From the NCBI GenBank assembly GCA_031273565.1, contig JAISRR010000085.1, forward strand, positions 1 to 39,241: DNA of 39,241 nt. The letters run 5' to 3'. Under the pieces are notes generated by a model. The model was given only the letters and a program-made list of their open reading frames with translations. It ran no database searches and had not been told where the DNA came from. Made by a program: the position numbers and the translations under genes. Source of the stretch: Zoogloeaceae bacterium. Its GTDB lineage: Bacteria; Pseudomonadota; Gammaproteobacteria; Burkholderiales; Rhodocyclaceae. Shown here piece by piece: positions 30,987-32,156 of the stretch (the first letter of the stretch is position 1; every line of letters begins with the position of its first letter).

Positions 30987-32156
30987 TTATACCCGTGTTG
31001 CACAGAAGTTGACGAGCGCGGAAGCGAGGTCTTCCTGTCCGGTCAGTTTTTTCCGCCACGCCGCGTTGTGCCGCGCCAATCGGGGCAATGCCTGCCGCAG
31101 CAGCGGCCAGTCCTGCTTGAGGGAAGCATCCCCGCGATTCCAGGCCTGCCAGAAATGGACGAGGCAAGGGTCAGGACGATAGCGGTCGAGAAACGCGGCA
31201 AGCTTTTGCAAATGCGCGTCCGCATCCTGTGGATAAATCTGCCAGACAAACGGCTTGCCCGCCCACTGTGCGCGGATAAAAGAATCTTCGCCGCGCACGA
31301 AATTGAGGTCGCAGGCAAACAGCAATTCGTCGTAGTCATTCTGCGTTAAAAATGGAATGGGAATGATATGCACATTCCCTATCGTCCAGGGCGCGTCACC
31401 TTCCAGGCAGGCACGCACAACGACCAGCGGCTTGCCCGGCGGCACGAGGCAGATGAGCGGCGCGTTATCATCCACCCACGCCGCCAGCAACGGCGCAAAA
31501 GGCGCAGAGTCATAGCAGAACAGACTGACCAGCAAGGTGTCGTTGGTGACAGGGATACTGACAACCCCGCTCCCCCGGTCCTTTCGCGCCACCTCTCTCA
31601 GAGAGGGCGCCATTGAAAGCTTTCCTCCCTGAGGAAGGCGGCGCAAAGCGCCGGAAGGAGCCGCTTTGTCGGCAAGCAATTCATCGCGTGCCCGAAAACC
31701 CGCCTGCCGCACAAACAAATCCCGCTCCCGCAACAATCCGCCGGTCTGCGCCGTAAAACCGGGGAAAAAGAAATACTTGACCAGCGGCAACCGGGGATGC
31801 GGCGACGCCATGCCGTGACAACCGGCCACCCAGTCTGCCAGCCCCAGATAGTCGAGATTAATCCAGACCGGCGGCGGCGACCGCCCCGCCATCGCCCGTA
31901 CATAATTTTCCGGCAATGCACAGGCAAAGGCTTCAATCACCACCTCCGCCACCCGGTCGAACACCAGAGGCGTTTCCCACCGGCAAACCCGCACGCCCGC
32001 CATATTTTCCGGCGCCAGCGCAGCCAGCGGCGCAGGATCATCCACCCACAAGCGAACCGACAAGCCATGCTCTGCCGCCAGTTGCCGCGCCAACCGCCAA
32101 CAGACGCCCACGTCGCCAAAGTTGTCGACGACCTTGCAGAAGATGTCCCAGGTCAT
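30987..32156 (-). CDS. earP: EF-P arginine32 rhamnosyltransferase EarP, with an internal repeat-derived insertion
   Basis: MTWDIFCKVVDNFGDVGVCWRLARQLAAEHG; C-terminal FLTQNDYDELLFACDLNFVRGEDSFIRAQWAGKPFVWQIYPQ; next to efp. Start trimmed to 32156. Confidence 0.95.
   Translation of the reverse strand: MTWDIFCKVVDNFGDVGVCWRLARQLAAEHGLSVRLWVDDPAPLAALAPENMAGVRVCRWETPLVFDRVAEVVIEAFACALPENYVRAMAGRSPPPVWINLDYLGLADWVAGCHGMASPHPRLPLVKYFFFPGFTAQTGGLLRERDLFVRQAGFRARDELLADKAAPSGALRRLPQGGKLSMAPSLREVARKDRGSGVVSIPVTNDTLLVSLFCYDSAPFAPLLAAWVDDNAPLICLVPPGKPLVVVRACLEGDAPWTIGNVHIIPIPFLTQNDYDELLFACDLNFVRGEDSFIRAQWAGKPFVWQIYPQDADAHLQKLAAFLDRYRPDPCLVHFWQAWNRGDASLKQDWPLLRQALPRLARHNAAWRKKLTGQEDLASALVNFCATRV
31575..31654. 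repeat. Inverted pair of GGCGCTTTGCGCC-type repeat units inside earP
   Basis: CCGGTCCTTTCGCGCCACCTCTCTCAGAGAG ... CTTTCCTCCCTGAGGAAGGCGGCGCAAAGCGCCGG; the second half matches the ffh-downstream repeat in reverse orientation. Confidence 0.75.

What the first reader, a model, noticed from the sequence alone, without database searches (positions are those of the whole stretch)
31569..31667. Second in-frame repeat insertion, inside earP
Between QAGFRARDELLADK and LLVSLFCYD, EarP carries AAPSGALRRLPQGGKLSMAPSLREVARKDRGSGVVSIPVTNDT, noticeably longer than I expect for this linker. The DNA is an inverted pair of repeat units. One half, GAGGAAGGCGGCGCAAAGCGCCGGAAGGAG, nearly matches the reverse complement of the intergenic repeat after ffh (GAGGAAGGTGGCGCAAAGCGCCGGAAGGCG). 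The frame stays open through to conserved C-terminal EarP motifs. A different repeat family inserting in a second conserved gene suggests a recurrent process.
Basis: partly seen in the sequence, partly recalled or inferred. Interest (0 to 1): 0.8.

Follow-up and report, generated by a model that had tools for sequence, protein, structure and literature searches.

The report
Mobile DNA palindrome inside EarP linker
A 94-base palindromic repeat, present in dozens of copies in this uncultured bacterium, has inserted in frame into the flexible linker between the two halves of the enzyme EarP, and the same or other palindromes have done so repeatedly in linkers of other housekeeping proteins and in sister species.

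Summary
EarP here has 75 residues between FFPGF and the SLFCY strand, against a median of 31-43 in relatives. The extra DNA is a 94-bp near-perfect hairpin (31569-31662, minus strand) of a dispersed family with about 47 places found in this genome (a lower bound). It is open in frame and lies at the interdomain linker: in the AlphaFold model only residues 166-195 fall below pLDDT 50, while both GT-B domains are confident.

It is not a single accident. The same family sits in frame in WaaA, PrmC, a tandem ABC ATPase and a HupK-like protein. At the same EarP linker a sister species carries an unrelated 51-bp palindrome, and two EarPs 98-99% identical in both domains have wholly different linkers. 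WaaA and PrmC linkers of sister species hold other palindromes, once with a whole DUF559 ORF.

Best reading: several non-autonomous palindromic elements invade protein genes, as Rickettsia palindromic elements (RPEs) do, and survive only where in frame and between domains. Three different frames are used, so there is no conserved peptide, unlike RPEs. The mobilising enzyme is not identified, and EarP activity is untested. New variant of a known kind.

The parts
30987..32156 (-). earP, EF-P arginine rhamnosyltransferase, full-length open frame with the insert
   Evidence: ORF; PF10093 E=1.4e-127 over nearly the whole model; PDB EarP chains
31569..31662 (-). 94-bp palindromic element, coding residues 166-197 of the 390-residue translation from 32159
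   Evidence: hairpin; family hit of model R1 (the model includes this copy); disordered segment 166-195 in the model
31630..31658 (-). unit matching the repeat after ffh, 28 of 29 bases
   Evidence: inverted repeat pair I8
27412..27476 (+). intergenic, shorter copy of the same family downstream of ffh
   Evidence: model R1, 33.3 bits, E=6.1e-8 in the local search
30392..30949 (-). efp (EF-P, the substrate of EarP), next gene downstream
   Evidence: ORF of 185 aa; identified from its sequence by general knowledge, no family search was run on it

Best explanation
The insert is a copy of a dispersed, non-autonomous palindromic element (about 94 bp, ends near ACTCC...GGAGT, hairpin-forming) that landed in earP in the common ancestor of this species and at least one close relative. 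It is translated as a 32-residue disordered extension of the EarP interdomain linker. Copies found in genes are read in three different frames, so a landing that keeps the frame can still give a full-length protein; selection then keeps only copies lying between folded domains. Shown: the family, its dispersal, the open frames, the linker position, and independent palindrome insertions at the same linkers in sister species. Inferred: that the protein is active, that the element moves with a transposase acting in trans, and that the pattern comes from a selective filter and not from targeting.
For: Family and copy number with controls. Long linker unique to this EarP and one relative with the same insert, P0002. 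Same family in frame in WaaA, PrmC, a tandem ABC ATPase and a HupK-like protein. Unrelated 51-bp palindromic family, at least 40 scored copies in G009, in frame at the same EarP linker. P0004 and P0005 with domains 99.3% and 98.4% identical but wholly different linkers. Other palindromes in WaaA of G014 and PrmC of G014 and G009. Model: only residues 166-195 below pLDDT 50; insert at P. putida EarP about residues 168-178, linker helix 156-176.
Against: No cognate transposase and no target-site duplication was found for this family. Transcription, translation and EarP activity are untested. Hairpin strength of the prmC and waaA copies is modest (z -1.9 and -2.8), so those copies are degenerate. 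The genome is a draft with 5.98% estimated contamination.
Confidence: 0.86

Rival explanations
1. The linkers are preferred targets: palindromic elements insert into, or are exchanged with, palindromes already present, so certain linkers are landing pads where one family replaces another.
For: EarP, WaaA and PrmC linkers hold different families in sister species. P0004 and P0005 differ in the linker but hardly elsewhere. In G009 the element replaces linker residues that relatives keep.
Against: The genes were picked because this genome has an insert in them, and unoccupied linkers of other proteins were not counted. A plain filter (only linkers tolerate inserts) predicts much the same picture. 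Five other congeners have no insert in PrmC.
Confidence: 0.25
2. The insert has been recruited for a function in EarP, for instance tuning the hinge between the two domains or the binding of EF-P.
For: It is kept open in two species.
Against: It is predicted disordered, is 17 of 32 residues identical in P0002 where domains are 82-86% identical, and sister species have unrelated or no inserts.
Confidence: 0.06
3. Assembly or binning artefact: the repeat was joined into earP wrongly.
For: Draft genome in 216 contigs, rich in repeats; some copies lie at contig ends.
Against: The frame continues into complete, conserved EarP domains on both sides; a separate assembly (P0002) has the same insert at the same place; other genes and species show the same kind of event.
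Confidence: 0.03

Closest known systems
Rickettsia palindromic elements (RPEs; Ogata et al. 2000 and 2002, as summarised in PMC10969869)
   Same: Palindromic elements about 100-150 bp, several families, in intergenic DNA and in frame inside unrelated conserved genes, in places compatible with the fold
   Different: Other phylum class (Betaproteobacteria, Rhodocyclaceae-like), read in three different frames with no conserved peptide, and the same linkers occupied by different families in sister species
Enterobacterial repeat units such as ERIC (PMC2759123)
   Same: Small mobile repeats fused in frame with open reading frames
   Different: Here the copies lie between domains of housekeeping proteins, not mainly in fusions that make new or terminal peptides (my reading passages only); no sequence comparison was made
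REP elements with RAYT transposases (PMC3733652)
   Same: High-copy palindromes; two RAYT-like Y1 genes exist in this genome
   Different: This element is longer and bipartite, and is not found beside the RAYT-like genes, which carry another palindrome family

Membership tests
Rickettsia palindromic elements | Palindromic element of about 100-150 bp dispersed in the genome | tested here: met
   94 bp, slightly short; hairpin z -7.2; about 47 places
Rickettsia palindromic elements | In-frame copies inside unrelated conserved genes | tested here: met
   EarP, WaaA, PrmC, tandem ABC ATPase, HupK-like; 5 of 47 places examined, against nearly half reported for RPEs
[quoted passage not shown]
   The GGCGC core is read as P-S-G-A-L in EarP, A-L-R-R in the HupK-like protein, P-P-A-L-R in WaaA: three frames
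Rickettsia palindromic elements | Sequence relationship to known RPE families | not tested
   No RPE sequences were fetched; the lineage is different
MITE | Terminal inverted repeats | tested here: met
   Full copies begin near ACTCC and end near GGAGT
MITE | Target-site duplication | tested here: inconclusive
   No duplication evident in the flanks of full copies by eye; exact ends are uncertain
MITE | Cognate autonomous transposon with the same ends | not tested
   No full search for transposases was made; only Y1 and DUF559 families were sought
REP with RAYT | RAYT gene flanked by the same palindrome | tested here: not met
   L091 and L092 carry GGGAGCGCGGGGC palindromes; the element model finds nothing there

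The most novel reading that the evidence does not exclude
Certain interdomain linkers (EarP, WaaA, PrmC) in this genus are active exchange sites where unrelated palindromic families insert into or replace one another, so that linkers turn over far faster than the folded domains they join.
Probability: 0.25. Interest if true: 0.8.

Novelty: new variant of a known kind. Interest (0 to 1): 0.63.

Why it matters
In-frame palindromes in conserved proteins were described as a speciality of Rickettsia. Here the same kind of process is seen in a Betaproteobacterial genus with several element families at once, and sister species give natural occupied and empty versions of the same linker. That makes it possible to test directly how proteins accept foreign sequence, and whether repeats are aimed at linkers or merely survive there.

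Tried and rejected
Chance match: rejected by control counts. Long linker as an EarP norm: rejected. Rfam family: none in the window. Plasmid-borne repeat: no match among plasmids. DUF559 endonuclease as the mover: attractive because it sits inside PrmC of G011 between palindromes and L290 and L291 show the same kind of neighbours, but no DUF559 match was found in G000. RAYT as the mover: present, but tied to another palindrome. G014 EarP linker as one more palindrome: only a 31-nt, 87% repeat match and z -2.7, so left open. Other ORFs around G009 copies had no Pfam family and were not counted. Inserts at L195 (DUF2300) and L219 lie upstream of the likely start codon and were not counted. Two scripts failed, the cause being unoriented loci.

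Full report
Observation. The insert reported at 31569-31667 is present. The protein is EarP (PF10093, E=1.4e-127; PDB EarP chains). Aligned with 36 relatives, the stretch DLFVRQAGF...LFCYDSAPF is 75 residues here and 26-58 elsewhere. Anchored otherwise (FFPGF to SLFxY), it is 75 residues against a median of 31 in 105 database homologues and 43.5 (maximum 48) in 78 genome loci. The added DNA is one 94-bp hairpin at 31569-31662 on the minus strand; a 120-bp stretch around it has z = -7.2 against dinucleotide shuffles. The nearest named genomes are Zoogloeaceae bacterium Rs511_bin19 and Betaproteobacteria bacterium MS502-89.

The repeat is a family. The match to the intergenic repeat after ffh is 28 of 29 bases. 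The core TTCCGGCGCTTTGCGCC occurs 22 times at up to one mismatch in the genome, against none for the reversed pattern, and 51 times against 5 at up to two. A covariance model built from eight copies, the earP one included, finds 80 strand-hits at about 47 distinct places; 150 of about 1200 first-look candidates were scored, so this is a lower bound. Full-length copies are about 93-96 bp with ends near ACTCC...GGAGT. In 20 congeners the family is rare: 7 strand-hits in G014, 6 in G009, 5 in G012, 0-4 elsewhere.

Where it sits in the protein. The insert codes residues 166-197. An AlphaFold model from 41 sequences has mean pLDDT 88.9, and its only segment of three or more residues below 50 is 166-195. 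The model matches EarP crystal structures. By the alignment the insert falls at about residues 168-178 of P. putida EarP, whose domains are joined by a bipartite helix of residues 156-176 (PMC5615199). So the element lies at the interdomain linker of a GT-B enzyme.

It has been tolerated for some time. P0002, from another assembly, is 82-86% identical in the domains and has a linker of the same 59 residues with a homologous insert, 17 of 32 residues identical and no stop. The insert thus seems to predate the split of the two and changes faster than the domains.

Other genes of the same genome. I screened 47 copies for an open frame with coding character on both sides and checked candidates against Pfam and homologues. 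Four further in-frame cases hold: WaaA (ORF residues 336-367, between Glycos_transf_N and Glycos_transf_1), PrmC (155-184, between PrmC_N and the methyltransferase domain), a tandem ABC ATPase (351-375, between its halves; the linker there is variable in all relatives) and a HupK-like protein (166-197, in a stretch variable among homologues). The peptides are read in three different frames of the element. The search asked for in-frame copies, so it cannot say how many landings broke genes.

Sister species, same linkers, other palindromes. In G009 the EarP linker holds a 51-bp palindrome, 17 codons, of an unrelated family with at least 40 scored copies in G009 (z = -8.6); of 43 places examined it is the only one in a recognised gene. 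P0004 and P0005 are identical at 144/145 and 179/182 domain residues, yet their linkers are 71 and 22 residues without resemblance. WaaA of G014 carries GGTAGGGCGGTTTC...GAAACCGCCCTACC, a family also in this window at 27552. PrmC carries GTAGGGGCGGTTTGCGAACCGCCCCTAC in G014, CTCCCCTCTCCCACAAGGAGAGAGGGGAG in G009, and in G011 roughly 200 extra residues including a DUF559 domain (PF04480, E=6.5e-42) with palindromes on both sides; five other congeners have no insert. P0059, apparently outside the genus, has a PSPPTPLPQAGEG-type stretch in its EarP linker; its DNA was not seen.

Mechanism. Shown: a dispersed family, in-frame copies at linkers, repeated independent events. Inferred: movement in trans and a selective filter. 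The mover is unknown. Two RAYT-like genes exist in the genome, but with a different palindrome, which they carry in frame inside their own coding sequence. No DUF559 match was found in G000. Target duplications were not evident.

Known and new. RPEs are the closest known kind: palindromes in frame in unrelated genes (PMC10969869); enterobacterial repeat units are also found fused in frame (PMC2759123). A feature reported for RPEs, a conserved peptide, was tested and not met, so this works like an RPE but is not filed as one. The new points are the taxon, the use of three frames, and the repeated occupation of the same linkers by different families. The genes were chosen because this genome has an insert in them, so how special these linkers are remains to be measured.

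Noticed in passing
L284 and L292 (G011:C101, about 371-1648): PrmC of a congener holds an in-frame DUF559 (Vsr-like fold by family resemblance) ORF between palindromes. DUF559 genes of two other congeners (L290, L291) also lie among GGGAGAGGGG-type palindromes, which suggests that DUF559 genes and these palindromes travel together.
   Followed up: partly
L091 and L092 (G000:C30 and C159): Two RAYT-like Y1 transposase genes have a GGGAGCGCGGGGC...GCCCCGCGCTCCC palindrome upstream and a different version of the same palindrome in frame inside their own coding sequence, just before FWQPDYWDRF.
   Followed up: partly
window 84-137, 8790-8829, 27551-27623, 28871-29022: Copies of another palindromic family (GGTAGGGCGGTTTC...GAAACCGCCCTACC and related forms); the same family is inserted in WaaA of G014.
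   Followed up: partly
flanks of many copies, for example L007, L009, L010, L038, L045: Many copies sit next to arrays of CTGTCCTCTGTCCTCCGT-like 7-8 base repeats; their role is unknown.
   Followed up: no
G015 genome: 40 sites of nearly identical TACCGGCGCTTTGCGCC but no hit of the 94-bp model: a separate expansion of the small hairpin.
   Followed up: no
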